From: Bolinopsis microptera
Lineage: Eukaryota; Ctenophora; Tentaculata; Lobata; Bolinopsidae
Assembly: GCF_026151205.1 (NCBI RefSeq)
Contig: NC_087072.1
Location: forward strand, 19,436,103 to 19,500,102
Length of the DNA stretch: 64,000 nucleotides
Reading direction: 5' to 3'
Positions within the stretch are counted from its first letter, which is position 1. Every line of letters begins with the position of its first letter. This document shows, piece after piece, positions 1 to 24,063 of the stretch. The position numbers were made by a program, and so were the translations under genes. The notes beneath the pieces are model-generated. The model worked only from the letters and a program-made list of their open reading frames with translations. It ran no database searches and was not told the origin of the DNA.

Positions 1-1018
1 CCGACAATTTTGATGTCTTTCCGGCAGTTATGTTAGATTTTATTCGTTTTTTTACAGCATTAATCCCTCCCAAATGGTAACAAAATGCTGTAAATCATAT
101 AGTGTTGACTTTATAAGATGTAGCTTCATCTATAAATAACTTCAAAATATTTTGTAACTTTAGCCACGATATAAATCAATCAACTATATGTACAACTGTA
201 TGTTCCGTATCAAAAAGTTTCATTCGTAGATATTATCATTGTTGCAATTATTATAAATTATTTGGAACTGTTAAGAGTTGCAGCGTCAGAAATCTGATCC
301 CTGGAAGGATTCAGCTTCTCAAATGGAAATTATACTAATGTTCCAGCCATAAAATTAATGAGGATTGCACAAAAACAAAAATTGGCCTTTTTCCAAACAA
401 AGAAAATGCTATAATGTTAAATTACCGTTCTCAAATACAAAATGATACCGAGAATGAAATAGGTCGCTCACTTTTCCTATTAGTTCATGAAGCATGATTC
501 ACGGCCTGCAAATTGTACCGAATTTAGGTTTATTACATCAATCACACTCTGTATGAATCTCTGGGCTGCTTTCCGGCCGATACCTAGTGACGCTAGGTGA
601 GCGTACTTCGAGATAAGAGCACAGTAGAGCCCCCTCCCGGATTACAACATTGCAATGTAAGAAAAATAATAGCTGCACTAATAATATTCGTTACATGTGC
701 TGACCCTCACTTACTTTTTATAGGACGCATTGAATCTTCTGAATAAGTTTAAAATGATCGCTACTGGCGCATTATATACAACCAATTTACTGCCAACATA
801 CATAAAATAATCCACTACTCTATATTCACCATACGGCAAATTTACGGCCATATCATACACACTACTCCACTAGCATCATGTAGCCAGTTTATCACGGACG
901 TCGGACACATAATATATAATCGGCATGTTTTTGTAAAATATAATTATGGCTTGATTTAACTCGATTCAAGTATTCTTGGTTGCACTAGATTTTCCAAATT
1001 ACCACTTAATTTTGACTA
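1..1018. other. non-coding stretch upstream of the BTB ORF
   Basis: AT-rich sequence with stops in all frames and no ORF, RNA gene or repeat array I can support. It may hold the BTB promoter. If the NRDE2-like gene starts outside the window, this is also part of one of its introns. Confidence 0.5.
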
Positions 1019-1048
1019 ATGCTCATTGTACTCAGTATAAACCAGGAG

Positions 1049-2854: not shown

Positions 2855-5800
2855 GTTAGTTTCTCGTCACAATCATGTTTGAATACTGTGAAGTGTGATA
2901 TATATCCTACCTCAGTTTTTAGAGTGACAGTTGATATTTATAATTAGGGAACAACAGGCTGATTAGTAAAACAAAAGGCTAATTCTATTTGCAGCACCAT
3001 CAATTGATATGATAAATTATAAACACCCAGAGCATGTTTCTGTCTAAAAGTAAAACCTACTGATAGCCACCAAAAATTGGGTGAATGATATAAATTGACT
3101 GTAACACAAGCCTGTTACAGCAATTTGGAGTACCTGATGAGGTTGTGTGAACAGATGTACTCAAGACTGGAAAACCAAACTGTTATTGGGGTCTTTTGGA
3201 CTCTTCTTACTCATCTAAAGTCCTCAAATGGTGAATAAGCTTATAGTGCCACAACTAAAACGTTAAAAATGATCTAAACATTTCAGAACATTTAATTCTA
3301 TCAACTACATAAAACTATTGCCTCCACCATCACTATAATATATGTACCGCAGTTAAGAGCACATCTCGGTTTGTGAAGGGTCTGCTAAAAGAGCCAGGAC
3401 ACCGCAACAACATGACCTACTGGTCCCTCTTTACTCACTTCACCTCGGAGAGCCACTCCGTGCTTCAGAAACTACTCACTACTCCTCTCTCCGCGTATCA
3501 TGAAGCAGTGTTGAGGAACAAGTTGGCACTTTGTCAGGAAGCTGGGACACAGGGAGATAGGGGGAGAGTTGATAGTGTTGATAGTGTTGATAGGGAGATT
3601 GAGGAGCTGATCTGTAAACCCATTCTCAGGTAACGTTTAGCTTAAATATAATGTTTACATCATACGTGTGTTAGCTGGTGGTTGTTGGCTGTGTGTACTT
3701 AATTTTAAGCAATATTGTGTACTATTCTTCAACATTGCCCCCTAGGAACTAAAATCAAGTGTAAGGTTTTTTTTTTCTGGGTGCCACAGACCCACCCAAT
3801 GGTGCTGACTTTTTTGGGTTAAAGACCCACTTTTCCATTGAATGTGGCTCGCTGGCTGAGCTGCGCTCGCAGTAACTTTTTTCGCAAATTTTTTAATCCA
3901 ATTTTTTGAACTTTCCCTATCAACAATCTTAGAGATTGGACTAATAATTTAGGACTTGAAGTTGATGACCTTCTTCCGTCAGAATAAATATATGTACTAT
4001 TCATATATTATGCAATATTCCACCACATTTTGGTTGATAATTTGATTTCCAAAGTCCACTCATACATATGTGGAAAACTTACAAATACCTCTTAAAATGG
4101 TGGCTTTATACTTATAGTATAAAGATGTAGGTATAGGTCAGGGACGTAGCCAGGTTTTTTAATCCAGCTGCGCAGCGAGCGAAGCGAGCAAGCTGTGGCA
4201 GGGGTCTGGGGGCGCAGCCCCTGGAAAATTTTTGCGAAACAGGGTGTTTTAGACGACATTTGGCATTAAAGAAATTTGTAGGACAGCAATAAACTGGGAT
4301 TGAAAAGAATCAAGTACTCACGTACAGGGACGTAGCCAGGATTTTTCTTTGAGGGGAGCTGTCGGCGAGCGAAGCGAGCCGACGTGACCAATCCAGCTGC
4401 GCAGCGAGCGAAGCGAGCAAGCTGTGGCAGGGGTCTGGGGGCGCAGCCCCCAGCGGGGTCCAGGGGCAGAGCCCCTTGGCGGGGGCTAAGGGGGCGCAGC
4501 CCCCCGGAAATTTTTTGCGAAACAGGGTGTTTTAGACGACATTTGGCATTAAAGAAATTTGTAGGACAGCAATAAACTGGGATTGAAAAGAATCAAGTAC
4601 TCACGTAAAGTTGGTAACTTCACAACAGCAATCTGCATTCTCCAATCAGAATTTACGACTTACTCAGGCCTCATCGTCTTAAAATTTTTACATTTCCTAC
4701 GGTCTAGGGGACACTATATTGACTATTTATAGAAGTCTTCTAGAATGTTTGCTTGGATGTTATGACAGATATTTACTAATGACTAATCCACAGTTCAAAT
4801 CTTTGACTGACTGCAGTCATAAACACAGCCCAGTTACCAGGCGACCATGGGGGAGTAGACACACAGTTGATAACAACAGACCTACTATCAATATCAACAG
4901 ACCCACTATTTCATCTTACAGACCCACAAGTCAATCCACAGACCCATTTTAGAGTAGCAAAGACCCACTATTAAGCTAGTAGACACACACTTAATAAAAA
5001 TAGGCCCACTATTTGACCTTAGAGACCCACTGCCAATAACAACAGACCCACTTTGTAACCTTACAGACCCACAAATAAATCTACAGACCCATTTCAGAGT
5101 AGCAAAGGCCCACTATTTAGCGAGTAGACACACACTTAATAACAACAGACCCACTATCAATATCAACAGGCTCACTATTTCATCTTACAGACCCACAAGT
5201 CAATCTACAGACCCATTTCAGAGTAGCAAAGACCCACTATTAAGCGAGTAGACACACACTTAATAACAACAGACCCACTATCAATATCAACAGGCCCACT
5301 ATTTCATCTTACAGACCTTAAGTCAATCTACAGACCCATTTCAGATTAGCAAAGACCCACTATTAAGCGAGTAGACACACAGTTGATAACAACAGACCTA
5401 CTATCAATATCAACAGACCCATTATTTCATCTTACAGACCCACAAGTCAATCCACAGACCCATTTCAGAGTAGCAAAGACCCACTATTAAGCTAGTAGAC
5501 ACACACTTAATAAAAATAGGCCCACTATTTGACCTTAGAGACCCACTGCCAATAATAACAGACCCACTTTGTAACCTTACAGACCCACAAATAAATCTAC
5601 AGACCCATTTCAGAGTAGCAAAGGCCCACTATTAAGCGAGTAGACACACACTTAATAACAACAGACCCACTATCAATATCAACAGGCCCACTATTTCATC
5701 TTACAGACCCACAAGTCAATCCACAGACCCATTTCAGAGTAGCAAAGACCCACTATTAAGCTAGTAGACACACACTTAATAAAAATAGGCCCACTATTTG

Positions 5801-8800
5801 ACCTTAGAGACCCACTGCCAATAATAACAGACCCACTTTGTAACCTTACAGACCCACAAATAAATCTACAGACCCATTTCAGAGTAGCAAAGGCCCACTA
5901 TTAAGCGAGTAGACACACACTTAATAACAACAGACCCACTATCAATATCAACAGGCCCACTATTTCATCTTACAGACCCACAAGTCAATCTACAGACCCA
6001 TTTCAGAGTAGCAAAGACCCACTATTAAGCGAGTAGACACACACTTAATAACAACAGACCCACTATCAATATCAACAGGCTCACTATTTCATCTTACAGA
6101 CCCACAAGTCAATCTACAGACCAATTTCAGAGTAGCAAAGACCCACTATTAAGCGAGTAGACACACACTTAATAACAACAGACCCACTATCAATATCAAC
6201 AGGCCCACTATTTCATCTTACAGACCTTAAGTCAATCTACAGACCCATTTCAGATTAGCAAAGACCCACTATTAAGCGAGTAGACACACAGTTAATAACA
6301 ACAGACCTACTATCAATATCAACAGACCCACTATTTCATCTTACAGACCCACAAGTCAATCCACAGACCCATTTCAGAGTAGCAAAGACCCACTATTAAG
6401 CTAGTAGACACACACTTAATAAAAATAGGCCCACTATTTGACCTTAGAGACCCACTGCCAATAATAACAGACCCACTTTGTAACCTTACAGACCCACAAA
6501 TAAATCTACAGACCCATTTCAGAGTAGCAAAGGCCCACTATTAAGCGAGTAGACACACACTTAATAACAACAGACCCACTATCAATATCAACAGGCCCAC
6601 TATTTCATCTTACAGACCTTAAGTCAATCTACAGACCCATTTCAGATTAGCAAAGACCCACTATTAAGCGAGTAGACACACAGTTGATAACAACAGACCT
6701 ACTATCAATATCAACAGACCCACTATTTCATCTTACAGACCCACAAGTCAATCCACAGACCCATTTCAGAGTAGCAAAGACCCACTATTAAGCTAGTAGA
6801 CACACACTTAATAAAAATAGGCCCACTATTTGACCTTAGAGACCCACTGCCAATAATAACAGACCCACTTTGTAACCTTACAGACCCACAAATAAATCTA
6901 CAGACCCATTTCAGAGTAGCAAAGGCCCACTATTAAGCGAGTAGACACACACTTAATAACAACAGACCCACTATCAATATCAACAGGCCCACTATTTCAT
7001 CTTACAGACCCACAAGTCAATCCACAGACCCATTTCAGAGTAGCAAAGACCCACTATTAAGCTAGTAGACACACACTTAATAAAAATAGGCCCACTATTT
7101 GACCTTAGAGACCCACTGCCAATAATAACAGACCCACTTTGTAACCTTACAGACCCACAAATAAATCTACAGACCCATTTCAGAGTAGCAAAGGCCCACT
7201 ATTAAGCGAGTAGACAAACACTTAATAACAACAGACCCACTATCAATATCAACAGGCCCACTATTTCATCTTACAGACCCACAAGTCAATCTACAGACCC
7301 ATTTCAGAGTAGCAAAGACCCACTATTAAGCGAGTAGACACACACTTAATAACAACAGACCCACTATCAATATCAACAGGCTCACTATTTCATCTTACAG
7401 ACCCACAAGTCAATCTACAGACCCATTTCAGAGTAGCAAAGACCCACTATTAAGCGAGTAGACACACACTTAATAACAACAGACCCACTATCAATATCAA
7501 CAGGCCCACTATTTCATCTTACAGACCTTAAGTCAATCTACAGACCCATTTCAGATTAGCAAAGACCCACTATTAAGCGAGTAGACACACAGTTAATAAC
7601 AACAGACCTACTATCAATATCAACAGACCCACTATTTCATCTTACAGACCCACAAGTCAATCCACAGACCCATTTCAGAGTAGCAAAGACCCACTATTAA
7701 GCTAGTAGACACACACTTAATAAAAATAGGCCCACTATTTAACCTTAGAGACCCACTGCCAATAATAACAGACCCACTTTGTAACCTTACAGACCCACAA
7801 ATAAATCTACAGACCCATTTCAGAGTAGCAAAGGCCCACTATTAAGCGAGTAGACACACACTTAATAACAACAGACCCACTATCGATATCAACAGGCTCA
7901 CTATTTCATCTTACAGACCCACAAGTCAATCTACAGACCCATTTCAGAGTAGCAAAGACCCACTATTAAGCGAGTAGACACACACTTAATAACAACAGAC
8001 CCACTATCAATATCAACAGGCCCACTATTTCATCTTACAGACCTTAAGTCAATCTACAGACCCATTTCAGATTAGCAAAGACCCACTATTAAGCGAGTAG
8101 ACACACACTTAATAACAACAGACCCACTATCAATATCAACAGACCCACTGTTTCATCTTACAGACCCACAAGTCAACCTATCAACAGACCCACTATTTCA
8201 TCTTACAGACCCACAAGTCAATCTACAGACCCATTTCAGAGTAGCAAAGACCCACTATTAAGCGAGTAGACACACACTTAATAACAACAGACCCACTATC
8301 AATATCAACAGGCCCACTATTTCATCTTACAGACCGACAAGTCAATCTACAGACCCATTTCAGAGTAGCAAAGACCCACTATTAAGCGAGTAGACACACA
8401 CTTAATAACAACAGACCCACTATCAATATCAACAGACCCACTATTTCATCTTACAGACCCACAAGTCAACCTATCAACAGACCCACTATTTCATCTTACA
8501 GACCCACAAGTCAATCTACAGACCCATTTCAGAGTAGCAAAGACCCACTATTAAGCGAGTAGACACACACTTAATAACAACAGACCCACTATCAATATCA
8601 ACAGGCCCACTATTTCATCTTACAGACCCACAAGTCAATCCACAGACCCATTTCAGAGTAGCAAAGACCCACTATTAAGCTAGTAGACACACACTTAATA
8701 AAAATAGGCCCACTATTTGACCTTAGAGACCCACTGCCAATAATAACAGACCCACTTTGTAACCTTACAGACCCACAAATAAATCTACAGACCCATTTCA

Positions 8801-10417
8801 GAGTAGCAAAGGCCCACTATTAAGCGAGTAGACACACACTTAATAACAACAGACCCACTATCAATATCAACAGGCCCACTATTTCATCTTACAGACCTTA
8901 AGTCAATCTACAGACCCATTTCAGATTAGCAAAGACCCACTATTAAGCGAGTAGACACACACTTAATAACAACAGACCCACTATCAATATCAACAGGCTC
9001 ACTATTTCATCTTACAGACCCACAAGTCAATCTACAGACCCATTTCAGAGTAGCAAAGACCCACTATTAAGCGAGTAGACACACACTTAATAACAACAGA
9101 CCCACTATCAATATCAACAAGCCCACTATTTCATCTTACAGACCTTAAGTCAATCTACAGACCCATTTCAGATTAGCAAAGACCCACTATTAAGCGAGTA
9201 GACACACAGTTAATAACAACAGACCTACTATCAATATCAACAGACCCACTATTTCATCTTACAGACCCACAAGTCAATCCACAGACCCATTTCAGAGTAG
9301 CAAAGACCCACTATTAAGCTAGTAGACACACACTTAATAAAAATAGGCCCACTATTTAACCTTAGAGACCCACTGCCAATAATAACAGACCCACTTTGTA
9401 ACCTTACAGACCCACAAATAAATCTACAGACCCATTTCAGAGTAGCAAAGGCCCACTATTAAGCGAGTAGACACACACTTAATAACAACAGACCCACTAT
9501 CGATATCAACAGGCTCACTATTTCATCTTACAGACCCACAAGTCAATCTACAGACCCATTTCAGAGTAGCAAAGACCCACTATTAAGCGAGTAGACACAC
9601 ACTTAATAACAACAGACCCACTATCAATATCAACAGGCCCACTATTTCATCTTACAGACCTTAAGTCAATCTACAGACCCATTTCAGATTAGCAAAGACC
9701 CACTATTAAGCGAGTAGACACACACTTAATAACAACAGACCCACTATCAATATCAACAGACCCACTATTTCATCTTACAGACCCACAAGTCAATCTACAG
9801 ACCCATTTCAGATTAGCAAAGACCCACTATTAAGCGAGTAGACACACAGTTAATAACAACAGACCTACTATCAATATCAACAGACCCACTATTTCATCTT
9901 ACAGACCGACAAGTCAATCTACAGACCCATTTCAGAGTAGCAAAGACCCACTATTAAGCGAGTAGACACACACTTAATAACAACAGACCCACTATCAATA
10001 TCAACAGACCCACTATTTCATCTTACAGACCCACAAGTCAACCTATCAACAGACCCACTATTTCATCTTACAGACCCACAAGTCAATCTACAGACCCATT
10101 TCAGAGTAGCAAAGACCCACTATTAAGCGAGTAGACACACACTTAATAACAACAGACCCACTATCAATATCAACAGGCCCACTATTTCATCTTACAGACC
10201 GACAAGTCAATCTACAGACCCATTTCAGAGTAGCAAAGACCCACTATTAAGCGAGTAGACACACACTTAATAACAACAGACCCACTATCAATATCAACAG
10301 ACCCACTATTCCACCTTATAGAGTATAGACCCATGTAAGTAAGTCTACACTATAATAAAACACATCCAAGCTATCAACAGGCCCACTATTAACCATGGTC
10401 AATTCAATCCTAACCTC

Positions 10418-10467
<50 letters not shown>

Positions 10468-13400
10468 GAAAATATGTTTTTTTTTTGTTTCAGCCAATTT
10501 TAATTTTTCGATGAAAAAATTTGAGGCAAGGGTGCTGGCACCCTTGGCACCCTATAAAAAAAAACCTTAATCAAGTGTACCTGATCATTGCATCAGTCCA
10601 TTATCAGCACATGTCTTTACGATATGATCTGAGTGTTACCTAATATTAATGTATCCCCAATTCAAGTGTTATGTATAATGTATAATAGGAGAGTTGAAAG
10701 GAAACGAAATACAGTATTTACTACCCCGCTACTATGCGGCAAAGATATTGCATAAGATATAACAAAATAATTTACACGACTAAAATAACTAAAATACCAT
10801 CAAGTTCAAAACATCTTATTAAATAGGTATTAGGCATATTTACTATTTAGGTTACTAACTAAGAAAACTGCTAGAGTAAACTCTCTAGTACTTCACATTT
10901 TGTTGTCCAAGTAGGTTCTAATGATAGTGCTGCAATAAAAATAATAATGCTAAACTTTCAAACAAATTAGAACCAGCTATGTTATAATTTGTTACTCAGT
11001 ATCAATAATGCAATTTGCAAATTATGAGAAAAAGCATCGACTGTTAAACCGCCTTACACAGTATAAAAATGACGAAATCTGTTCAAAAGATTTAAATGTT
11101 GATATGTTTATAACTGAAAACTTTCAAATGGGATAATTTTTAAGTGAAGTAAAAACAAGCTTTGAAACAGAAATTAGCATGTTCAAAACTATTATATCAC
11201 AAAACTCAAAAAATAAAGTAACATGAGTGCTAGAATATTCTGATATGTAGCAAAACTAATTGAAACTTAAAAAGTCGAATAAGTTACAATTTGTTTTCAA
11301 ATACTATTTAACCTTTTAACGCTAAATTTCCTTTCTACTTGCATTTTATAGATTCTGACCTTGCACCCTTTTTGCAATACGCATACAAACAACAAGACTC
11401 AAATTCAAATTTACCATTCTTGCTGCATTTCTTTTTCATCTTCTTATTGTAACTGCCACACTCTGAAATCAATAAGGATATGAGTGGTAAGAACAACATG
11501 TAAACAAGGAACTTCAGGTGACACGAACTGCTCATTGTGAGTAGACTGTACCAAGCCATGTATTAAAATATCTCTAGAATAAATCTTAAAATTGATTTAG
11601 AGGTTCCTGCTTAGTGGGTTATGCTTTGAAGGCCTGGCTTTATCATTTCCCTATTTGCCCTGTCCCTCTGATCTCTGTGGTAACTTAAAGATGATAACTA
11701 TGGTAACTATGGTAACTATGGTAACTATGGTAACTATGGTAACTATGGTAACTATGGTAACTATGGTAATTTTCTTACCATATTTACAGTCACACGCCCA
11801 CTTGTAAGTGTACCAATTCTGCAGGCAATTGAAGGTCCGGACATCAAGTTCTCCTTCAAAACTTCTGTTGAAATCCTCCTCTGTACATTGGTTTGTTGTC
11901 CTGTCTGTCGATGGCTCTACGGTCACTGTTCCATACAAAACCGGTCCAGGAGTAACTGAAGGTGCTGGAAAGGAAAATAAGTATTTCAAGCAAATAAAAC
12001 TACTGGTACAACTATTGGTACTATTAGAACATTACATAATACAACTACTGGTACTATTCAAACATTACATAATACAACTACTGGTACTATTAAAACATTA
12101 CATTATACAACTACTGGTACTATTAGAACATTACATTATACAACTACTGGTACTATTAAAACATTACATAATACAACTACTGGTACTATTAGAACATTAC
12201 ATTATACAACTACTGGTACTATTAGAACATTACAAAATACAACTACTGGTACTATTAGAACATTACAAAATACAACTACTGGTACTATTAGAACATTACA
12301 AAATACAACTACTTGTACTATTAGAACATTACATAATACAACTACTGGTACTATTAGAACATTACAAAATACAACTACTGGTACTATTAAAACATTACAT
12401 AATACAACTACTGGTACTATTAAAACATTACATAATACAACTACTGGTACTATTAGAACATTACAAAATACAACTACTGGTACTATTAGAACATTACATA
12501 ATACAACTACTGGTACTATTAGAACATTACAAAATACAACTACTGGTACTATTAGAACATTACATAATACAACTACTGGTACTATTAGAACATTACAAAA
12601 TACAACTACTGGTACTATTAGAACATTACATAATACAACTACTGGTACTATTAGAACATTACATAATACAACTACTGGTACTATTAGAACATTACGTTGT
12701 AGTGAGTATGTAAGAGATTGAATATATTTCACCGGATTATAACCGCTCCCAACCCTTATTGTCTTATTAATTGCCTTATCAACTACAATTCAATGATTAA
12801 TAATGCTAAATGTAAGTATCACTTACTAATACTATAACTTCGTTACCTGTGTAATGAACGGAGCAGTATATTAGGATACCGACAGTCAGAACGGTGATAA
12901 AAACCATGGAAAAGAGACATATGATCACATAGTGCTTTCTTATTAATCTTCCTCCTTCGCTTATTAATGACCCGGATTCTCTCCCCTCTGGACTCATTGC
13001 TGGTTTAAAATTGTAATCAAAGTAAGTTACTTATACTATTGGTAGAAGAATCGTGTGGTGCAAAGTTTTTTGGGCTAAAAAGCGCTGGAACTTAACAAAC
13101 TGATCAAGGTTGTAAAATAGAGCTAACATTAAACATTGTTACATTTTGAGAATCTAACATCATCCAGGATAGAATACCTGAGCTGGACTATAGACGTCTT
13201 TCTCTGGCAATGAATGGGGGGAACTAACTTCCCTGAGTGTTCCACCAAATTATATTCCTAGTATAGATACAGTATACTATACAGTATACTAGTATAGATA
13301 TTATCTACAGTAAAGATCTTTAAACGGACGATATTTCGAGGATTTTGATAATATGCTCTGAGCCATCTTGATGAGAATTATTATTAAATAATAGTTATAA

Positions 13401-16400
13401 ACAAGGGACGAGAGAAGAGTAGTATATTAGTGAGACTATTTTTCAACAGAAAAAATTATATCTTAAGCCAGGAGACTGAAACTAATAGAGAAATACAAAT
13501 CCGTTTCCAACCGTCCACAGTCCAGACCTTTCTCTGTCCTAGCAAATAGTTCAGCAAAAGAAATAAAGGGAGTAAAGGGAGTGATCAAACGTATCAAATT
13601 CATTTATCAAACACGGTATAATCTACAACGTTGATGATATAGGTACTATCATAGATCGACCTTACAAACAATCTGGTAGCTATTTTGAGAGAGTGACCCT
13701 CTCTTTAATAAAAGAATTTAATAGAAATGTTTGTCCCATCCCCTGAATATTACAAGTGGTTTACTGTGTGGGTGTTCATTTTGGTGGCATGAATGTTGGT
13801 GGTGTCCTAGCGTAATTTGTATTCAAGCTTGACTTACTTCTAAAAGAAATGCACCTGATATTTACTACTTATACCTCGCTTGAGAGGCTATAGAAGATCC
13901 AGAATGCTGAAAATCACCCTTTGTGAGTACTCTGATTATATTCTCTGAACTCTGATTCTGAACTTTGATTAGACTAATGTTTTGTCACTCTGATCATGGT
14001 AACGGTTGGTATACACACATGACGTATAAGTGTGTAACTTTGTGTTATAGTTTTATCAGTTATGTCCAAGTCCGTATTGGGCAAGGTAAAACGGTTCGTT
14101 GAGTAAGAGATCTCGATATAATGTTTCTTGAATATTTTCTGAGAAGTCATATCCTATATTATTATGTGTGGTGTCATGTGCAATTCATCGAATTTGAGAG
14201 ACAATGTGACCGAAATTAAATTGACTTCATTTGAAAACGCACCAAAAAGTACAGAGGGGGGTGATATGTTGAAAGTAGCGACACAAATACACGCAATTGG
14301 AATGAACTGACTGATACAGATGCAGGAATGTACATATGTTTAATGATAAAATGAGGAAACGGAATTAAGTGGGCGTTTCCAGTGTTATTAACTACAAATT
14401 TAACTTCTCAAATGCTGTTTTTGTACCATAAAGCTGAGATATTTTTTTTATCTAGACACTTATTTTACTTCGGTGTATTCCAACAGCCACAATGTTACAC
14501 AAGTGCAACCAGCCAATTACAGGAAGCCGAAGGATCTTTTTGGCCAGTGACGGTTAAGGTAGTGTGTACCATACTTTCTTCGTCCGAGACTTTGCTGCAA
14601 TGTGCAGCTCCTCATTTAACCCTCACACCCGATTTCTCGAGTATTCGGCTGAGTAGACCGGGGGGCTGCATAGACCACTCATGATCCTTAGCTGAACGTC
14701 GACGACGCTCACCCCACGACCAGGCAGTCAGTGGGTTTCGAACTCGCAACCTAACGATTGTAAGACAGGCGTTCTAACCAACTGCGCTACCTGGCCGTTA
14801 AAAATATAGTTTTATCCGTTATGTGAATGTCCAAGTACGTACCGTATTCGGTATTGGGTAAGGTAAAACGGTTAGTTGAGTAGGAGATCTCAATATCATG
14901 TGCAATTCATGGTATTTGAGAGACAATGTGACCGAAATTTAACTGACTTCAGTTGAGAACGCACCAAAACGTACAGAGGGAGTTGGGGGACATAAGTCAG
15001 TTTACTCACGTTGGGTCGTATATCCACGTTCGGGAGCTTTTCTTAAAACCCCCATCCTATAATTTCCCGCACTGTAAAGCATCATTTTTCTCATAACATC
15101 ACATATCCGGGCAGGCCACTGTTTAGCAATAACGTGCTATATATGGACAAGTTCATTAATTGAATTTGTCATGAGTTACGAGAGTTACAAAATAATAGAT
15201 TAAAATTTTTAATTAAGGTCTACATAGTTGTTAGAAAATTACTTGATATATTGAGTATTTGAACCCAAGGTGGAGTAGGTTGTTGCTGGTTGCGCGCGGT
15301 TGTTCGCCGAATGATCGTGAAGGTACGTTGATCTGTCATCTGTTGCTGTAGAAGTTGGAGGATGTGGAGGAATCGTAATCGAATGATCATTCATATAGCT
15401 GTGCCCATTATTTAAATACCATTTGATCAGGTCCGGTCGTAATAAATTAGCCCAACATGCACGGCAGAGCATATTGTCATAGCGACCCTAGCAAGTGTAA
15501 TAGTGTATAGAAACCAAATTGGGAGTTGGGAGTTATAGTTAGCCTAGTAAGTATAAAACAATTGGGCATTTAAGTTATTATACAATACTTCACATTGTGC
15601 TATTATGTTTCAGAGTTTAACGTGGATTACTATTTTAAGTGACGCTTTAGAGTCACAACTTTGAAGACAACTTCCATTTTACTAAATAAAATATGCACTT
15701 TATTAAGTAGCTTAAATAATTTCAAGGTTCTAAAGGTGTCAAATAAATATTTCACAAGTTACAACCGAAAAAACACACACTGGTATAGAAGTATTGATAA
15801 TTAGTTTTCCGAATAATCATATTTGAAGCGAGAATGATAGTGCTAAAGTCATAATTGTAATTAGTTGTTCGGATCGACAGTTACCGTCCAACAGGTTAAA
15901 AAACAAAATCTGTTAAACAAGGTTCAAATATTCACATTCCAAACTTACTACATTCAAGCTTTTATATAACACGGAAATACGTAAATGATATTCAAAATCA
16001 GCATACAAATAAACAAAAAGTTAAGTCAAAATAACAAACAAAGTAATGAAGCTGCTAAAATTCCCTGAAATACCAGATTTAATCATTAAATTCAGGCGGA
16101 AAAAGTGAAATACTGTTTAAAAATTAAAGTTAAAATCAGTTTCCAAAATTACTGTACGCTATTTCACGAATATTATTCACTACCGAGAACATCTAATGCT
16201 CTTTTTGCAATACGAATATTTACAACAAGACTCCTTATCAGCACCGTTACTCCTCTCGCATTGTTTCCGTATACTCTTCCTGAAGGCGGAGCAATCTGAA
16301 GTTATTTAGGATCTGTTACGTTAATGGTGATGTAAGATATTCTAAGTGCCTATTGTATGATTTTTTGGCTTTATGTGGTTCTTTGCACGAAACGTAAAGG

Positions 16401-19400
16401 TCACTTAAGATTCTATCTTTGGTAATTAACCTATGATTTATTTACTTACTATGACTACAACTGCAGTTCCACTTGTAGTCGTAGGAAGACTGCAGGCATC
16501 TCCTGGTACGTTCATCAAATGATGTTGGAGAAAAGATATTTGCAAAATCATCATTTGAACATTGGCTTGTGGTAGCCTTTGTCGCTGGTAAAATTAAATC
16601 CTCCGGCGCGGACGGAGACATGGTATCCTGATGCTCGTTCACCTCAGGCCCAATAGTTGCGTCAACAGTTGCAACATCTGCTTCTTCTCGGCCTCCTGAA
16701 AAAGGAGACATGAATAGTATTGGAAAATATAAAAACTGGTACTATTCGAACAAGTTATTTCGCTATATCAGCCACCTTCTGGTCAATATTGAATGGTGTT
16801 TTGTTTTACTTTTAGTCAGTAACAAAGTTATTACCTTCTTTTTTAACGGATAAGAAGTAATATAGGATACCCGCAGTCACAATGGAGATTATCAGCAAGG
16901 AAAACACACAAATCCACACATAGTGCTTTTTATTGGATCTCTCCTCTGCGCTTATCATTGACTCGGATTCCATCCTGTCTTCTGCCATAGCTGTTTCTAA
17001 TTATCTGAGTAAATTACAATTTCATTTCAAGCAGAATTGGGCTGGGCAGGGACTGGTATTATTAGGAATCGTTTACATAGTTGGTTAGCAGCTTAATGTG
17101 AATCCTGGAGGGGTTCTGAATTGCTGAAGGTTCCCGAAGGGGGGGGGGGGGGATGTTGGGACGGAGGTTTTAGCCATATTATATGTGAGGATTATTCTAC
17201 CCGCTTGAAGGTTAAAATTGAGCTAAATATGAATTATCACACTATGTCTTGAAAACGGTTAAAGATGGTTTCGATAGTTTTGGCCTGGACAAAAATGAGC
17301 AGTAATAGAACAACAAAACTCGAAATTAAAAATAAACATTTTTAGCTCAAATTAAGAAACGGACAAATTACTCAATTAAATGGGTAACAAATAAAACAAG
17401 TTTTGTCACAGCGCTCTTGTTGCAATACCGTGGGAACTGTGGCGGCTGAATTTCAGTCGTTCAACTCAGTCCTGCAAGAGTAAAGATTGAGATACTGATT
17501 ACTGAAGATTTTTTACCTGCAATTTTATAATTATTTATCACCGTGCTTTTTAATACCAAAAACTATAGATATTAAAGAACTATATCATGACTAAACTGAC
17601 CCATTAATAATTTTGGTGACTTCAGTTAATTCGGCTTAGGTATTCCAGCAATGTTTATTAATTACACAAGTTAGACGATGAATAAGCTGGAATGTTTTTG
17701 AAAATGAATATATTATAATCAAAATTACGCTTCTATTGTGCATAATAACTAAGATACCATAGCAGAATCACTAAGATACCATCCATGGTGAGAAAATAAA
17801 ATGGTGGGAAAATTGTGACGTTGATAAAGTAGGTTGAATGATTGATAGAGAAGTGGTTAGCAGATAGAAATCTAACGTGTATACACCACTGTAAATAAGT
17901 ACCTTTTCAGGCCCCCTCCTTACGTTAAAAGTTCAAAGCCTGGTTACATTTTGAAAAACTTTCAAGTAAAGAGATTAACCAGAAGGAAATTTAATTGTTT
18001 GGAAGTCCTAGAGAGCAATAAAATTTATCATTTTGCTCCACATTTTCAACCTGTGGCCACCATTCCAGTGATCTCTCTCCAGAACCTGCTCTCTCATTTA
18101 TTTATTTTCAAAGCGTTTCTAAACTGCATAAAATTTGCAGGGGCCCTGATCATCTTGTCACAGCAAGCACATGGAGAAACCCCCAGAAAATTAATAATAA
18201 CTTAAACTGATGTTGCAAAAACCTTTTAAAATAAAAAATTCAACGATAGCCCTAGCCGCAAAGGTAAAAATCTCTCGCAAAAATAGCCAGGTTAAAAAAA
18301 TTTTAGCTTACGTTAAGGTGCCACTTTTTGAACTTATTTTCACCTATGCGTGTATACAGCTACAGTTTATTTGAGAGGCTACAGATACTAGGGATTGGGA
18401 TCATGTATATGTCTATATGTCTCCAGCAAAAGTTAATGTTCATTTAAAAAAAAAGAAGATTCAACTCACACATAAAAAATGTTACTCTAAAAAGTGACAA
18501 ATATATACACCGCTCAGTCAATTAAAGAATAAATAGATATAATGAAGGTATTGTTTTAAATTTGAAGTATTAGGTTAGTATGATAGGTATTTGACACTGC
18601 ATTCTATAATATTATTTCAGAAATATCACATAGCTATAGCCTAATAGCTAATACTGTAGCAATAAAATATCTTGTAGTTCCAGGAGGTCAAGAAACCGGA
18701 TCCAGGAAATAATTTTGGGGGAGCTTTTGAAGAAGAGGACGTTCGTGATTCCGATTCTCTCAAATGTGACAGTTTTTAATCTATTATTCTACGTCTTGGT
18801 TCTTATATCTCAATCTTTCAAATTCGTACCAAGCAATATTTGTTGAAACTCAACCCATGCCCATTTATTCCCCAATTTTTGGTCAAATAGGCATGGGCAT
18901 GGGCTTAAAGATAGCTAAAACTTAAGTCATGATAAAAATAAATATCACCATTGTGTTGGCCGTCCTCAAATTAGTAATTAAAGCTATATTTTAGCTAAAT
19001 TAGGTGTAAACAGTAATATAAGCCTTTCTATAATAATGGCAATAAATATCAACTAAATATCGAGACCGGTACTGGGATACATTGAATATGGAGGATCGAT
19101 CTAGCGACCTCTTAAGTCGATCTGGGAAAGCCATAGAAAATGTGGATGATTTCATCTACTTAGGCTCCTGGATTGAGAGCACAGATAGGGAGATAAGGGT
19201 TAGAAAGGGAAAAGCGTGGGGTGCCCTACATAGACTGAAGGATATCTGGAAATCCAAACTCTCAGAGAGCCTTAAGATTAGATTGTTCGTAGCGGCTTGT
19301 GAGTCAGTACTGCTCTACGGATCAGAAACCTGGACACTGACAAAGGCTTCAAGAGAAAAGTTTGGACGGGACATACACAAAGATGCTGCGTATGGCGCTG

Positions 19401-22400
19401 GGTATCTCATGGAAGGACAAGGTCAGCAATATAACTTTGTATGGTAGCCTACCAAGGCTGTCAAACAAGTTACGAAGCAGGAGATTAAAATTGACGGGAC
19501 ACTGCATCAGACATCCTGAGCTACTTGCTACAGAGATTTATGGACGGTTTTTTACTTGAACGATGCCCAATACAAAGCAACTTATAATGAGGATTTATAA
19601 TGAGGTGACTGGAAACAGTGTGTTATTGTCGGATTTTTTCATGGACATTACGTAATAATAATTGCCTATTTAAGTATTATCGGCTATAGAATATAGATGA
19701 AAACAAAAGTATTGCCTGAGAGAATTGTTTGCTAATAAACATGGTGTAATGCAGGGATATATGAAGGGGGGGGGAGGGGGTTATCTGGCGTAGATCAGAC
19801 TTAGTTCCGACATAGTAGTAGTAGTAGTATGGCCGAGACTGGTACTGGGATAAAACGTGACGAAAACACAAAGGTACTTGCTACAATGTTATAAACTCGT
19901 CAGACTTACATTGTCCCCGCCCTTAGTGTCTTGCCACCAAGATACTTTAACCAAATTGTACTTAGGATAATGAAATGGAAATCAGTTTTGGTATAAGTGC
20001 TCCTAACAATACAATGGCCACAGACTACAGACTACAGAGATTTATGGACGGTTTTTTGCTTGAACGACGCCCAATACAAAACAACTTATAATGAGGATTT
20101 ATAATGAGGTGGCTATAGAAACAGTGTGTTATTGTCGTATTTTGTCATCTAGACAGTACGTAATAATAATTGCCTATTTAAGTACCGTAGATTGGGGTAA
20201 AATCGCCGTGTCGGGGAACTTCGCCACTATTTTTCAAATAATCATTTTACTGTTTTGAATTGTTAGGAGATCGAGTTTTTGTGCAGTATTGTGTTAAACA
20301 AATGGTTATGAAGGTATTCCTATTCAAAAATAAACTTTCACTATGTTAAGTAACCTCAGGCAACATGACATAATGCAACTAAGTGGCTAAAACTTTCGGC
20401 TTGCATATTTCCCATATTTTCCAATTATATCCTTAATAAATTCTGTGTGGCATCATTAGCATATATGTCTTGTTCATTGTATCGACGGACAGTCTAGACC
20501 GCAATGAAAATGCTTGTACGTCGTGCAATACCTCGTATGATGGCTATCATACCGGACCCGATTGGTCCTGTTGTCTTGTGAGTGCAAATTTGCGGGATTT
20601 GCGAATATGGCGAAGTTACCCTTAAAACGTTGTTCGTATTGGCGAAGTTCGACTACATTTCTACTTCATCCCGGCGATGTTACCCGCAGCATGGCGATGT
20701 TACCCCAGCGACTAAATTGCCCATTGTAACACGCAGGCTAGAGCTAGATAAATAAAATTGGCAGGTGTATCAAGGATATATAATTGAGTTTCGAGTGGTA
20801 TCATGGTGCTTAGCACCGAATATGGTATAGTTTCAGAATGGCGAAGTTACCCCATATCGCAGGGTAACTTCGCCCTGATTTCAGTGGCACCAATCTAGCT
20901 GACTATTTATGCGTGGCTGATGTGGTTCATACGAAAACATTTGTTTTACCAATCCTGTTCATATGAGCTATAAACTTTTTCAAGTACTCGTGTCGTATTT
21001 TCTAAATAACATGAAATAGCTGTAAAACATGGCGAAGTTCCCCCATTCTACAATCTACGGTATTATCGGCTATAGATGAAAACAAAAGTATTGCCTGAGA
21101 GAATTGTTTGCTAATAAGAATGGTGTAATGCAGTATCAGACTTGTACACTATTACTATTTTAACAAAAGCGCTTCTACTCACATTATGATTGGTGCTATT
21201 CAGAACTCTCCTTACCGATATTCATAACTGTTAAATTGTAAGTTATTTAGATTTTAACTAATATTATTTTATCATAACCCCCTAATTACAATTTTAGCAC
21301 GACAGAGACCCTCCACCTGGGCACGTACGCTACCAACCTGTTCTGCTCCAACTACACCACCCTCTCACCCCTCTCACCAGAACAAGGACCCTACCTGTTA
21401 GCCCACGTGGGTAGATTAGTGGAGTCGGGGCTGCCACGTGACCAGATCCAAGTGGACTTGTTGGTTCTCTTCAGACACGTCATACAGACCGAGCTGAAGC
21501 GTGGTGACGAGGCAGATACCAACATTCTAAGGAAGGTGTGATCTTGTGGTGTTTAGCATGGTTGTATTTCAGTTCATTTAAGGATATTTAACTCTTTTGT
21601 ATTTCAATTTGCTGTTTGATTTAAGTATTGTTCGGAAATTAGAATACGTGGATTTCCAGTGAATAATACGTTTACATATTATTCTTACGTTCCTTGGAAA
21701 TTCTACTTATCCAAAAATATTGCATTTTGCAGGTAGCCCTGTTAGCAGTGGAGCAGTTTCCTCAGATACAAATGTTCTGGGACCTTTTAAAGAAACATGT
21801 GACAATGACTAGTAAAATATGGGAAAGGTATTATAAGATGGCAATATTCACAATTCTGAACTTTATTCAAGTTTTCGTAAATGTATTGTAATGGAAGCTT
21901 AGAGAAGGAATCGTTTTGATGAAGTATTAGGTAGATATAGATGCTTTTTTTCTTCAAGTTTGTGATTATTTGTTAAACTGATTATGATCGTAGCTACCCT
22001 CCTCACCCCTCCATCATATCCAGATTATTAAAGAGCAACCAAGAAACAATGTGGTACTGCAGAGTTACACACGAGTGTGACAAGCAGGAAACTCACCCGG
22101 ATATCAACCTGACTAACCGGATAATATCCCTGGCGGTCACCTCTGTTGATACCTTCCCTCGCTCGCTACTATTGTGGGAGCTTTATACTCATATCTCGCA
22201 GGTCAGTAAACTGGAAACTAATGAAATCGTGAATTGTATTTGAAGTCATTTTCAAGATAATAATATGTCATGTGAAGAAAGACTATTGAAACTGCAAACA
22301 ATAACTAGCGCAACTTAGATTAAATTAAATATTTTTCAGAAGTACGATACAAAGTCCCTGAAAAGTGTTCTCATTCGATCCATCAAGGAAAATCCTTCTA

Positions 22401-22812
22401 TGAAGCAATTTTACCTACAAGCTATCCACTGTTGTCCCGTAAATTAAATTTCTTCATCGCTATTTAGTTTATTTTTTAAAGTAGTGATCTAATTTTGATC
22501 TCTTTGTTCGATATCTAGCTATACTATCAAGATAATTTTGTATTAAGTGTGCCGCTTGCCGCTTAAAACCCCTCTCTTGCTGCTTAAAACTCCTCTCTTG
22601 ACGCTTAAAACCCCTCTCTTGCCGCTTAAAACCCCTCTCTTGCCGCTTAAAACCCCTCTCTTGCCGCTTAAAACCCCTCTCGGTTATTCAACCTTTTAAC
22701 TAACCCTGGAAATTAATTCCAGGAGGAGGCAGAAACAGTGTACGAGCTGATAGAAGAGAAACAGATCAGGCTGAGAACTCTTATAGAGGAAATTCAGATG
22801 TTCTGCCAATGA
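2671..22812 (+). CDS. NRDE2: NRDE2-like protein, 3' exons
   Basis: Proposed coding exons: 2671-2854 (less sure), 3360-3629, 21298-21535, 21733-21827, 22024-22201, 22340-22438, 22723-22812 (stop TGA). Intron phases match at every junction, although the acceptor before 3360 is weak and 3353 is an alternative. The C-terminus reads as NRDE2: helical HAT/TPR-like segments such as ENPSMKQFYLQAIHCCP, then a last helix pair ending in EEKQIRLRTLIEEIQMFCQ. In known animals NRDE2 is a nuclear protein tied to nuclear RNAi in worms and to MTR4/exosome control and splicing in vertebrates. The N-terminal half must lie upstream of the window. The intron 3630-21297 is about 17.7 kb and carries two minus-strand genes and large repeats. 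The other introns are 100-300 nt. AATAAA at 23126-23131 is the likely poly(A) signal. Confidence 0.72.
3360..3629 (+). CDS. NRDE2 internal exon before the giant intron
   Basis: Encodes FVKGLLKEPGHRNN followed by YWSLFTHF, which reads like an NRDE2 HAT-repeat segment. The donor is CAG|GTAACG at 3630 (phase 2), joining in frame to the exon at 21298. A run of GATAGTGTT imperfect repeats (3571-3590) encodes VDSVDSVD, probably a small in-frame expansion. Confidence 0.62.
3753..3762. repeat. left 10-bp target-site duplication
   Basis: AATCAAGTGT directly abuts the left terminal inverted repeat of the satellite-bearing element and recurs exactly at 10569-10578, just outside the right end. Confidence 0.85.
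4139..4607. repeat. two tandem copies of a GC-rich dispersed repeat
   Basis: Units 4139-4325 and 4326-4607 both begin CAGGGACGTAGCCAGG and both end in AATCAAGTACTCACGTA. Inside are short GC-rich blocks (GCGAGCGAAGCGAGC; repeated GGGGGCGCAGCCCC inverted motifs). The second copy is longer by extra GGGGCGCAGCCCC blocks. The look is that of a miniature inverted-repeat element; no coding content is convincing. Confidence 0.65.
4853..10330. repeat. satellite array with two monomer types and higher-order structure
   Basis: About 5.5 kb built from units marked by CAGACCCATTTCAGAGTAGC and AGTAGACACACACTTAATAA. Two unit lengths alternate: about 123-124 bp (with CAATATCAACAGGCCCAC) and about 145 bp (with AAAAATAGGCCCAC and CACTTTGTAACC). 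GACCCAC recurs many times per unit. Blocks of mixed units repeat as larger blocks, so this is a higher-order array. No open frame crosses it. Confidence 0.9.
10420..10466. repeat. poly-C tract
   Basis: An almost unbroken run of more than 40 C residues just inside the right end of the transposon, followed by an A/T-rich stretch. The exact length is likely unreliable in assembly and variable between individuals. Confidence 0.9.
10579..11334. other. AT-rich intronic sequence
   Basis: Between the right target duplication and the minus-strand membrane-protein gene. No ORF, array or RNA gene is seen. It lies in the large NRDE2 intron and probably includes the 3' UTR of the minus-strand gene. Confidence 0.5.
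11335..12997 (-). CDS. type II membrane protein with ten-cysteine ectodomain, copy 1
   Basis: Three coding exons on the minus strand: 12997-12847 (ATG), 11964-11779, 11462-11335 (stop TAG), all joined in phase 1, giving 154 residues. Exon 1 encodes a short charged cytosolic segment (SLISEGGRLIRKHY) and one membrane helix at about residues 24-44; basic residues on its N-terminal side predict type II topology. Exon 2 is a Pro/Thr-rich stalk plus four cysteines (C-x19-C-x9-C-x-C). Exon 3 adds C-x10-C-x10-CC-x4-C-x10-C and ends IKCK. The same exon plan and spacing recur in the gene at 16180-16988, so the two are tandem paralogues. I do not recognise the family. The ten cysteines suggest a disulphide-knotted extracellular domain, perhaps shed as a ligand, but that is inference. 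Intron 1 is swollen by a 33-bp minisatellite and intron 2 by a 9-bp repeat. Confidence 0.72.
11690..11770. repeat. 9-bp tandem repeat
   Basis: About nine near-perfect copies of GGTAACTAT in intron 2 of the first ten-cysteine gene. Nine being a multiple of three keeps a false frame open on the minus strand past the true donor at 11778. Confidence 0.9.
12000..12700. repeat. 33-bp minisatellite
   Basis: About 21 copies of a 33-bp unit containing CTACTGGTACTATT and GAACATTACA, with variation mostly at TACATAAT/TACAAAAT and TTAGAA/TTAAAA. It lies wholly in intron 1 of the first ten-cysteine gene (11965-12846). Because 33 is a multiple of three, long repetitive frames stay open on both strands; they are not genes. 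Confidence 0.92.
13254..13300. repeat. AT-rich palindromic cluster
   Basis: Overlapping GTATAGATA, ACAGTATACT and AGTATACTAGTATAG words form nested short palindromes about 260 bp upstream of the first ten-cysteine gene's start codon. This may be simple-sequence drift; any promoter role is speculative. Confidence 0.4.
14044..14266. repeat. direct repeat, copy A
   Basis: Shares ordered blocks with 14806-14983: TATAGTTTTATC, GGTAAAACGGTT, CATGTGCAATTCAT, GAGAGACAATGTGACCGAAA and CGCACCAAAA. Copy A carries extra sequence between the blocks. It lies upstream of the first ten-cysteine gene. Confidence 0.75.
14540..14796 (-). repeat. tRNA-derived SINE-like repeat
   Basis: Read on the minus strand, 14796-14718 has a tRNA shape: GGCCAGG acceptor strand, TAGCGCAGTTGG (A box), CTTACAA anticodon loop, GAGTTCGAAACC (B box) and CCTGGTC pairing back to the start. 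The T and anticodon stems have several mismatches, so this is not a working tRNA. About 180 bp of unrelated body follows, as in tRNA-headed SINEs. Its outer end at 14540 is a guess. Confidence 0.55.
14806..14983. repeat. direct repeat, copy B
   Basis: Second copy of the 14044-14266 segment, same orientation and more compact. The two copies bracket the SINE-like repeat, which suggests a local duplication. Confidence 0.75.
15239..15507 (-). CDS. candidate terminal exon of an unknown gene
   Basis: The minus-strand frame is open from a CTTGCTAG acceptor (exon start about 15507) to TAA at 15239. It begins GRYDNMLCRACWANLLRP and ends in a Ser/Thr/His-rich tail finishing NTQYIK. The first residues resemble the end of helix 7 and helix 8 of a class-A GPCR (RYxxxxRACW), with a cytosolic tail after it. 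No transmembrane exons are found upstream, so this may be an orphan or chance ORF. Confidence 0.28.
16180..16988 (-). CDS. type II membrane protein with ten-cysteine ectodomain, copy 2
   Basis: Coding exons 16988-16835 (ATG), 16695-16450 and 16295-16180 (stop TAG), phase 1 at both introns, 171 residues. Exon 1 carries SMISAEERSNKKHYVWIC and a membrane helix at about residues 24-45, matching copy 1 in position and character. Exon 2 has a longer acidic Pro/Thr stalk (about 60 residues) and then C-x20-C-x10-C-x-C. Exon 3 gives C-x10-C-x10-CC-x4-C-x5-C and stops after CSR. Shared short blocks with copy 1 include YKW, ESCC and YCKK. Exon 3 is only 116 nt and is easily missed by ORF calling. The introns are 139-154 nt, free of the arrays seen in copy 1. 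The function is unknown. Exons, phases and cysteine spacing are seen in the sequence; the extracellular orientation is inferred from charge distribution. Confidence 0.75.
16989..19080. other. intronic/intergenic stretch
   Basis: Upstream of the second ten-cysteine gene and inside the large NRDE2 intron. It has a poly-G run near 17140-17152, a GCCCATGCCC...GGGCATGGGC inverted repeat near 18855-18904, and no ORF that looks coding. Promoter elements for copy 2 should lie at its left end; I see no clear TATA box. Confidence 0.4.
19088..19560 (+). pseudogene. non-LTR retrotransposon reverse-transcriptase fragment, frameshifted
   Basis: The frame from 19088 encodes VDDFIYLGSWIESTDREI, then SVLLYGSETWTLT, a typical C-terminal stretch of LINE reverse transcriptases. 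A one-base shift near 19362 moves the match to another frame, which continues as YTKMLRMALGISWKDKV and ends RLKLTGHCIRHPELLATEI. Endonuclease and catalytic RT motifs are missing, so this is a 5'-truncated dead copy. The following 3' flank is duplicated at 20036. Confidence 0.75.
19537..19760 (+). repeat. repeat copy 1, probable LINE 3' tail
   Basis: From ACAGAGATTTATGGACGG to GGTGTAATGCAG, near-identical to 20036-20184 plus 21061-21132. This copy lacks the 876-bp insertion and so shows the empty site. Confidence 0.8.
20036..21132 (+). repeat. repeat copy 2, interrupted by a transposon
   Basis: The same sequence as 19537-19760 but split at TTTAAGTA/TTATCGG by the element at 20185-21060. Confidence 0.8.
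20185..21060. mobile_element. TA-flanked inverted-repeat transposon, non-autonomous
   Basis: Begins CCGTAGATTG and ends CAATCTACGG, flanked by TA on both sides (20183-20184, 21061-21062). The related copy at 19537-19760 shows the uninterrupted site with one TA. The interior has many GGCGAAGTTACCCC / GGGTAACTTCGCC words in both orientations. There is no transposase ORF. A TA target fits the Tc1/mariner superfamily; the 876-bp length fits a non-autonomous member. Confidence 0.85.
22552..22682. repeat. 21-bp tandem repeat in the last NRDE2 intron
   Basis: Six to seven copies of a unit containing GCCGCTTAAAACCCCTCTC. It accounts for nearly half of the 284-nt intron 22439-22722. Confidence 0.9.
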
Positions 22813-23350: not shown

Positions 23351-24063
23351 CTATTTCGTGTTGAGAAATTGTTTTCTTTTCCCGTTAAATGGCCGGTACG
23401 CCCGACGTTTACCTCTGTTCTCTTCTTCCCCGTGAAGAACTTCTTGAAGACTGTTTTCCTCTCCCATTGCCCGTTTATGCAATATCAAGTTATCCTCTTC
23501 CTCCAGGACTTCATTTTCTGATCCCCTCGGCATCTTGTGCAGCACTTCATCTTCTGCTCCCCTCTTGTGTAGAATCTCGTCTCCAGCGTTTCGTTTATGT
23601 AGAATTTCGTCTCCAATGTCTCGTTTATGCAGAATTTCCTCTTGAGACTCCCTTACGTATCGGGTGTGCTGTGCCTGTAAGTGTAAATATCTTACAATTA
23701 GTAATTAACTAACCATAGTGCAATTATAATTATTTCATTGTATCCCAGAATTATCGAGGCAATTGTGTGCAGCAAGATATTTTTGGAGAGGTGAAACAGA
23801 GTGGTAATAAAGCAAATTACAACATACTTTTTCCAGCTTGTGCGAATCTATTTGTAATCTGTTCATGATGCTATTATCATTTTGGTTGAACTTGTTCCAA
23901 ATTGCAATTTTCATAAAAAACATTCTTTTCCCGGCAATTGGCTTAGCTTTTAATTTAGCTTATAAGTATTACTAGAGATAGTTCTTACCGATTCACCGAG
24001 CACTTGGAGGATTAACCCAGCCCAAACAGTTATCAGCATAATTGATTTGATTAACCGAGCCAT
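23351..24063 (-). CDS. neuropeptide precursor with EILHKR repeats and a C-terminal amidation site
   Basis: Two coding exons: 24063-23989 (ATG, 25 codons, GTAAGA donor) and 23674-23351 (TTACAG acceptor, TAG stop), phase 0, 132 residues. Exon 1 is almost entirely a signal peptide (MARLIKSIMLITVWAGLILQ). Exon 2 carries a series of acidic units ending in LHKR: QEEILHKR, DIGDEILHKR, NAGDEILHKR, DEVLHKM (cleavage site lost) and DNLILHKR. These are followed by ENRGKR, RAYRPFNGKR and a short KQFLNTK tail. KR/GKR are classic prohormone-convertase sites, and the glycine before KR predicts C-terminal amidation, so a product such as RAYRPFN-amide is likely. I do not recognise the peptide family. The repeats differ at the nucleotide level while the KR sites are kept. 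The gene is convergent with NRDE2 and about 540 bp past its stop. Confidence 0.78.

What the first reader, a model, noticed from the sequence alone, without database searches (positions are those of the whole stretch)
11335..16988. Tandem pair of small type II membrane proteins with a ten-cysteine domain of unknown family
Two minus-strand genes share a three-exon plan, phase-1 introns, an N-terminal membrane helix with basic inner flank, a stalk, and the spacing C-x19/20-C-x9/10-C-x-C-x3-C-x10-C-x10-CC-x4-C-x5/10-C. Loops vary while cysteines are fixed, as in ligands or recognition proteins. The last exon is too short for simple ORF calling, so the family may be under-annotated.
Basis: partly seen in the sequence, partly recalled or inferred. 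Interest (0 to 1): 0.78.

Follow-up and report, generated by a model that had tools for sequence, protein, structure and literature searches.

The report
Twin ten-cysteine type II membrane proteins
Two neighbouring genes, probably from a comb jelly, encode small membrane-anchored proteins whose outer part keeps ten fixed cysteines while the rest has changed roughly as fast as unconstrained DNA; they match no family searched here and look like a lineage-specific pair of recognition or defence proteins.

Summary
Two minus-strand genes (A 16988-16180, 171 aa; B 12997-11335, 154 aa) each have three exons, GT-AG phase-1 introns, one hydrophobic segment behind a basic flank, a stalk, and C-x19/20-C-x10-C-x-C-x3-C-x10-C-x10-CC-x4-C-x5/10-C. 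They are 42% identical; all 10 ectodomain cysteines align, against 22 of 63 other columns. They are a tandem duplicate. Genome searches returned no third copy. No Pfam-A match reached its cut-off and no PDB match was significant. A somatomedin-B-like cysteine order was tested; shuffles that keep the cysteines score as well. New here: dN/dS is near 1 (0.91 NG86; 0.80 ML, about 0.5-1.35), although both frames stayed open and every cysteine stayed; exon 3 is cationic, exon 2 mildly anionic; the exon pieces model as helices at modest confidence. Assembly size and window GC fit the ctenophore Bolinopsis microptera (inferred). Best reading: a lineage-restricted, fast-changing, membrane-tethered mini-domain used in recognition or defence. 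There is no RNA evidence; the function is inferred.

The parts
16835..16988 (-). gene A exon 1: N-terminal tail (motif-like ESESMI), basic flank NKKHY, hydrophobic membrane segment
   Evidence: coordinates, splice; best 19-residue hydropathy window 2.63 at residue 24
16450..16695 (-). gene A exon 2: acidic stalk and cysteines C1-C4
16180..16295 (-). gene A exon 3: cationic segment with cysteines C5-C10 and stop
   Evidence: helical model of this piece
12847..12997 (-). gene B exon 1: tail (motif ESGSLI), basic flank IRKHY, hydrophobic membrane segment
   Evidence: (window 2.84 at residue 25)
11779..11964 (-). gene B exon 2: short stalk and cysteines C1-C4
11335..11462 (-). gene B exon 3: cationic segment with cysteines C5-C10 and stop
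12007..12695 (-). 33-bp minisatellite, 20.9 copies, inside gene B intron 1
16719..16752 (-). single stretch in gene A intron 1 that resembles gene B's minisatellite unit
   Evidence: blastn: 15 of 17 matches over 34 bp at 79-82%, 2 at 76%; position computed from the alignment coordinates

Best explanation
SHOWN: two intact, tandem-duplicated three-exon genes with one conserved ten-cysteine ectodomain frame, one hydrophobic N-terminal segment and open frames kept through much divergence. INFERRED: each makes a type II single-pass protein. The short tail (ESGSLI / ESESMI, resembling an acidic-dileucine sorting signal; motif recalled) faces the cytosol. The stalk holds a disulfide-locked, largely helical domain of about 75 residues outside the cell or inside a secretory granule. 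The fixed cysteines keep the scaffold while other residues change, so the two copies present different surfaces. The most likely use is binding a partner that also changes (non-self, gamete, or another animal's cells), with the cationic exon-3 half as contact face. Anatomy about 0.85 likely; recognition or ligand role about 0.4.
For: Exons, phases, splice sites. 10 of 10 Cys kept against 22 of 63 other ectodomain columns; NG86 dN/dS 0.91 over 149 codons, 0.94 in the ectodomain. ML omega 0.80 (about 0.5-1.35) overall and 1.46 (about 0.55-4.5) for the 63 ectodomain non-Cys codons. Loss of stops-free frame or of cysteines would be expected without constraint. Exon 3 net +8/+9, exon 2 C1-C4 net -1/-3. 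Exon pieces model as two helices each, mean pLDDT 73.1 and 68.0. Hydropathy peak with basic N-flank. No further copy returned from the assembly.
Against: No RNA, expression or protein evidence. omega does not exceed 1 significantly in any of the eight partitions, so relaxed constraint fits as well. Only two members were found, unlike typical large recognition families. The hydrophobic segment could be an anchor or a cleaved signal; no predictor was available. The structure models are single-exon fragments of 37 residues with two-row alignments, pTM 0.37-0.39, and the lower-ranked models fall to pLDDT 50.6 and 53.7.
Confidence: 0.45

Rival explanations
1. Host-defence peptide precursors: an anionic, membrane-anchored pro-region (exon 2) holds a cationic, six-cysteine helical segment (exon 3), released or exposed to act on microbes.
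For: Exon 3 net +8/+9, exon 2 C1-C4 -1/-3, exon-2 stalk -7/-1; even ectodomain cysteine number per exon (4 and 6); fast change with fixed cysteines.
Against: By eye no cleavage site conserved between the copies lies between C4 and C5 or in the stalks (reading). The whole ten-cysteine frame, not only exon 3, is conserved.
Confidence: 0.25
2. Relaxed, lineage-specific orphan pair of minor importance: a structural or granule membrane protein whose only demand is a folded disulfide core.
For: omega near 1 without significant excess; DNA identity in exons 2 and 3 no higher than in neighbouring non-coding stretches; only two copies returned.
Against: Frames open and all ten cysteines kept, each rare without constraint; exon 1 is also conserved, 46% at protein level.
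Confidence: 0.2
3. Divergent somatomedin-B (SMB) domain protein on a type II anchor, with an inserted loop and two extra cysteines.
For: C-x10-C-x-C-x3-C ... CC order shared with the one SMB match found in the assembly. BLASTP of that SMB stretch against B and A: E 0.007 and 0.057, each for a single comparison. hhalign P 0.045. Loop-shortened A gives SMB as its only Pfam match, E 0.26. A's full ectodomain scores above all but 28 of 1000 fully shuffled versions. SMB beside a type II anchor occurs in ENPP1/3 (recalled).
Against: hhalign probability 1.2%. With cysteines fixed, 178 (A full), 71 (A shortened), 754 (B full) and 495 (B shortened) of 1000 shuffles score as high; fully shuffled B reaches the score in 230 of 1000. 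No SMB match for the natural sequences nor for two loop-shortened forms of B. The C-x3/4-C start is absent.
Confidence: 0.06
4. The frames are not one gene each (unjoined exons, or decaying copies).
For: No RNA here; differences by codon position nearly equal (57, 58, 68 of 149).
Against: Canonical splice sites in register in both copies; open frames and cysteines kept.
Confidence: 0.04

Closest known systems
Somatomedin-B domain (Pfam PF01033; vitronectin, ENPP1/3)
   Same: C-x9/10-C-x-C-x3-C followed by CC (rows); in ENPPs beside a type II anchor (recalled)
   Different: two extra cysteines, 21 residues between C5 and CC instead of 5, C1-x19/20-C2 instead of C-x3/4-C; similarity not beyond cysteine positions, hhalign 1.2%
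GDNF-receptor/GAS1 domain (Pfam PF02351)
   Same: ten cysteines, helical, a C-x-C-x(3-4)-C-x(10-11)-C stretch (recalled, lead only)
   Different: not listed for either protein by Pfam and not at this locus in the assembly search; known members are GPI-anchored (recalled)
Lineage-restricted cysteine-rich proteins such as the coral SCRiPs (PMC2652719, PMC10892658: search listing and start of abstract only)
   Same: small, cysteine-framed, taxonomically restricted
   Different: PMC10892658's abstract calls SCRiPs neurotoxins; here the proteins carry a membrane segment; no sequence comparison was made
Ly6/uPAR domain
   Same: CC-x4-C near the end (recalled)
   Different: no C-x2-C start and no Asn after CC-x4-C (both features recalled); not listed by Pfam

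Membership tests
Somatomedin-B (PF01033) | profile score above the curated cut-off | tested here: not met
   not listed for natural sequences at E<=10 (HMMER filters drop most weak matches); loop-shortened A 12.1 bits against a cut-off of 23.1, two loop-shortened forms of B not listed
Somatomedin-B (PF01033) | eight cysteines with C-x3/4-C start and short C5-CC interval | tested here: not met
   spacings read, compared with the six SMB rows
Somatomedin-B (PF01033) | similarity beyond cysteine positions | tested here: not met
   cysteine-fixed shuffles reach the score in 71 to 754 of 1000; hhalign probability 1.2%, P 0.045; BLASTP E 0.007 and 0.057 count the cysteines
GDNF receptor / GAS1 (PF02351) | profile match | tested here: not met
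   not listed; one search gave one place on C7 under the cut-off (17.4 against 22 bits) and none here
Ly6/uPAR | C-x2-C start, CC-x4-C-N end, profile match | tested here: not met
   sequence reading; not listed; the features are recalled
Type II single-pass membrane proteins | one N-terminal hydrophobic segment, basic on the inner side, not cleaved | tested here: inconclusive
   one hydrophobic peak (2.63 / 2.84) with basic residues before it; topology and cleavage not testable here
Fast-evolving recognition proteins | dN/dS significantly above 1 at surface sites | tested here: inconclusive
   ectodomain non-Cys omega 1.46, 2dlnL 0.60 against omega 1

The most novel reading that the evidence does not exclude
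A comb-jelly-specific recognition pair on a new all-helical ten-cysteine scaffold, type II anchored, in which fixed cysteines carry surfaces under diversifying selection: a possible allorecognition, gamete or immune ligand system in what may be the sister lineage of other animals.
Probability: 0.15. Interest if true: 0.75.

Novelty: new variant of a known kind. Interest (0 to 1): 0.4.

Why it matters
Ctenophore immune repertoires have been surveyed by known protein domains (PMC11797021, passages); a pair that matches no known domain would fall outside such a survey. A fixed disulfide frame with near-neutral change elsewhere is a small, concrete, testable candidate, and its 116- and 128-bp last exons are easy to miss in annotation. 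If it proves to be an ordinary orphan pair, the interest is modest.

Tried and rejected
Not supported: somatomedin-B kinship (for and against are given under the rivals); GDNF-receptor domain; a viral or prokaryote relative (viral contigs with B's ectodomain, 27 pattern stretches and no relative; genome contigs with the two-row ectodomain alignment, 20 stretches and no relative). Weak Pfam names (DUF3267, Orf78, Lsm_interact, BTG, DUF7715 at best E 0.037 for a piece of B, FBA, NUP160_helical) are all under their cut-offs and none is listed for both natural proteins. PDB by sequence: A alone gave 4 chains at best E 0.2 in the stalk, the ectodomain profile 1 chain at E 0.89, a cysteine skeleton 0; B alone was not searched. 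Foldseek of the exon-3 model gave no PDB match; the exon-2 model was not searched. Skeleton queries with X gave no Pfam match. Pattern searches for hidden paralogues: 13 places for Y-K-W-x-C-x-C codons (reversed-pattern control 14) and 48 for CC-x4-C-K-K (control 31). I read by eye the translated context of 33 of these 61 places; only those of A and B fit. Of the other 28 only the 27 printed letters were seen. A COX1 family search to name the organism found nothing. Rfam and tRNA scans of the window were empty. The bacterial promoter scan is uninformative here. A short stretch near 10.9 kb looked by eye like a relic of exon 2; blastn and tblastn gave no match there to exon 2.
Full report
WHAT IS THERE. 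Gene A: exons 16988-16835, 16695-16450, 16295-16180, 171 aa. Gene B: exons 12997-12847, 11964-11779, 11462-11335, 154 aa. Both lie on the minus strand; all four introns are GT-AG and phase 1. The cysteine frame is C-x20/19-C-x10-C-x-C-x3-C-x10-C-x10-CC-x4-C-x5/10-C; the second spacing is x10 in both copies. Exon 2 carries four ectodomain cysteines, exon 3 six.

IS IT MORE THAN CHANCE. The proteins are 42% identical overall. In the ectodomain 10 of 10 cysteine columns but only 22 of 63 other columns are identical; given 32 identical of 73 columns, all ten cysteine columns being among them has probability 1e-4. In a neutral-decay simulation with substitutions only and branch lengths 0.2 and 0.3, the frame stayed stop-free in 37 and 10 of 2000 (A) and 36 and 14 of 2000 (B), and all ten cysteines survived in 9 and 1 (A) and 13 and 1 (B) of 2000. 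So both proteins have been kept.

ORIGIN. A and B are a tandem duplication. Blastn homology covers exon 1 with about 60 bases upstream, part of exon 2 with the start of intron 2, and exon 3. The 33-bp minisatellite of B's intron 1 (12007-12695, 20.9 copies) matches a single 34-bp stretch in A's intron 1 (15 of 17 matches of that length at 79-82%, 2 at 76%), so the array probably grew from sequence already in the ancestral intron. Genome-wide protein searches returned only exons of A and B (4 of 4, 6 of 6 and 4 of 4 scored candidates). The tool looks exon by exon and scores only its best candidates, so diverged copies could be missed. Pattern searches added nothing: 13 places against 14 for the reversed control, and 48 against 31. 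Context was read for 33 of these 61 places.

RATE OF CHANGE. NG86 dN/dS is 0.91 over 149 aligned codons, 0.94 in the ectodomain, 1.02 in exon 1 and 0.77 in the stalk. A Goldman-Yang maximum-likelihood fit gives omega 0.80 (about 0.5-1.35) overall, 0.90 for the ectodomain, 0.61 for the stalk, and 1.46 (about 0.55-4.5) for the ectodomain without cysteine columns; none of the eight partitions differs significantly from 1. Global-alignment DNA identity: exon 1 73%, exon 2 cysteine part 63%, exon 3 64%; nearest 5' flank 71%, intron 1 start 64% and end 66%, intron 2 start 76% and end 62%, 3' flank 65%, 5' flank beyond 60 bases 48%. Shuffles average 54-61%, and only exon 1 (0 of 300), the start of intron 2 (1 of 300) and the near 5' flank (7 of 300) clearly exceed them. 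The combination is: frame and cysteines under purifying selection, the rest close to neutral or partly diversifying. Two sequences cannot tell relaxed from positive selection.

ANATOMY. One hydrophobic peak (19-residue means 2.63 and 2.84) follows a basic flank NKKHY/IRKHY. This fits a type II anchor, but topology was not tested. The conserved tail contains ESESMI/ESGSLI, which resembles an acidic-dileucine sorting signal (recalled motif, inference). Stalks are 50 and 30 residues as cut, 28% and 43% Pro/Ser/Thr. Charge differs by exon: exon 3 is +8/+9, exon 2 C1-C4 -1/-3, the exon-2 stalk -7/-1. AlphaFold models of the A exon pieces, with two rows each, give two helices each: exon 3 mean pLDDT 73.1, pTM 0.37; exon 2 mean 68.0, pTM 0.39; the five models spread from 73.1 to 50.6 and from 68.0 to 53.7. 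Foldseek finds no PDB match for the exon-3 model; the exon-2 model was not searched. The spliced ectodomain could not be folded.

KNOWN FAMILIES. No Pfam-A family reaches its cut-off for either full protein or ectodomain. PDB searches with A, with the ectodomain profile and with a cysteine skeleton gave nothing significant. The best lead was the somatomedin-B domain. The one SMB match found in the assembly (27.5 bits) reads C-x3-C-x10-C-x-C-x3-C-x5-CC (translated by me), and the middle spacings occur in A and B. For it: BLASTP E 0.007 with B and 0.057 with A, each for one comparison; hhalign P 0.045; loop-shortened A gives SMB at E 0.26 as its only Pfam match. Against it: hhalign probability 1.2%; two loop-shortened forms of B do not list SMB; with cysteines held in place shuffled sequences score as well in 178 (A) and 754 (B) of 1000, or 71 and 495 of 1000 after the C5-CC loop was shortened; full shuffles reach the score in 28 (A) and 230 (B) of 1000. 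The resemblance is thus mainly one of cysteine order. I file it under no named family.

ORGANISM. The assembly has 264,652,675 bases in 232 contigs and its first contig reaches beyond 23.35 Mb. A table passage of PMC11797021 lists Bolinopsis microptera at 265 Mb, 38.5% GC, largest chromosome 26.2 Mb, 346 scaffolds; 4-kb blocks of the window lie between 35 and 43% GC. The scaffold number differs and no marker gene was compared, so the identification is probable, not proven. No relative was found in viral or prokaryote collections. Ctenophore proteomes were not available.

LITERATURE. Four full-text searches (20 of 20 papers listed; 12 of 21; 10 of 265; 2 of 2; listings and abstract starts only) showed no paper that describes such a protein. 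The library lacks most subscription journals and most was not seen, so this is weak evidence of absence.

VERDICT. A real, intact pair, lineage-restricted as far as could be searched. The mechanism I think most likely is a membrane-tethered disulfide mini-domain whose changing surface binds a changing partner; a cationic defence peptide and a relaxed orphan are the main rivals.

Noticed in passing
36525-37205 (-): TGF-beta ligand gene: the frame 36525-36809 matches PF00019 at 1.1e-18; the preceding frame 36930-37205 has an RKKR site just before its cysteines but no Pfam match itself.
   Followed up: partly
23354-23704 (-): Open frame with repeated ILHKR/EVLHK units and a final GKRRAYRPFNGKR stretch, like a neuropeptide precursor; no Pfam match at E<=0.01.
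   Followed up: no
22472-22687 (-): Tandem QERGFKR-like repeats in an open frame near the precursor-like frame; repeat or second precursor, not resolved.
   Followed up: no
12007-12695 and 11691-11769: 33-bp minisatellite in B intron 1 and 9-bp array (ATGGTAACT, 8.8 copies) in B intron 2. If intron 2 were retained, B's frame would run on through hydrophobic TIV repeats.
   Followed up: partly
17005-17013 and 13000-13010 (-): Acceptor-like sequences (TTTACTCAG, TTTTAAACCAG) lie 16 and 2 bases before the start codons of A and B, as for a 5' UTR intron or spliced-leader addition; an inference, no RNA seen.
   Followed up: no
5023-10322: Large satellite-like region with nested periods of 21, 41, 124, 145 and 269 bp beside the gene pair, then a 47-base run of C at 10419-10465.
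   Followed up: no
1016-2077 (+): Long open frame with a BTB domain, PF00651 at 2.2e-6.
   Followed up: no
19046-19444 (+): Open frame with DUF6451 (E 2e-5, 24.9 bits, below the cut-off of 28); possibly a retroelement remnant (guess).
   Followed up: no
L013 1400-1700: The only somatomedin-B match returned from the assembly (C9, 27.5 bits, open frame 568 aa).
   Followed up: partly
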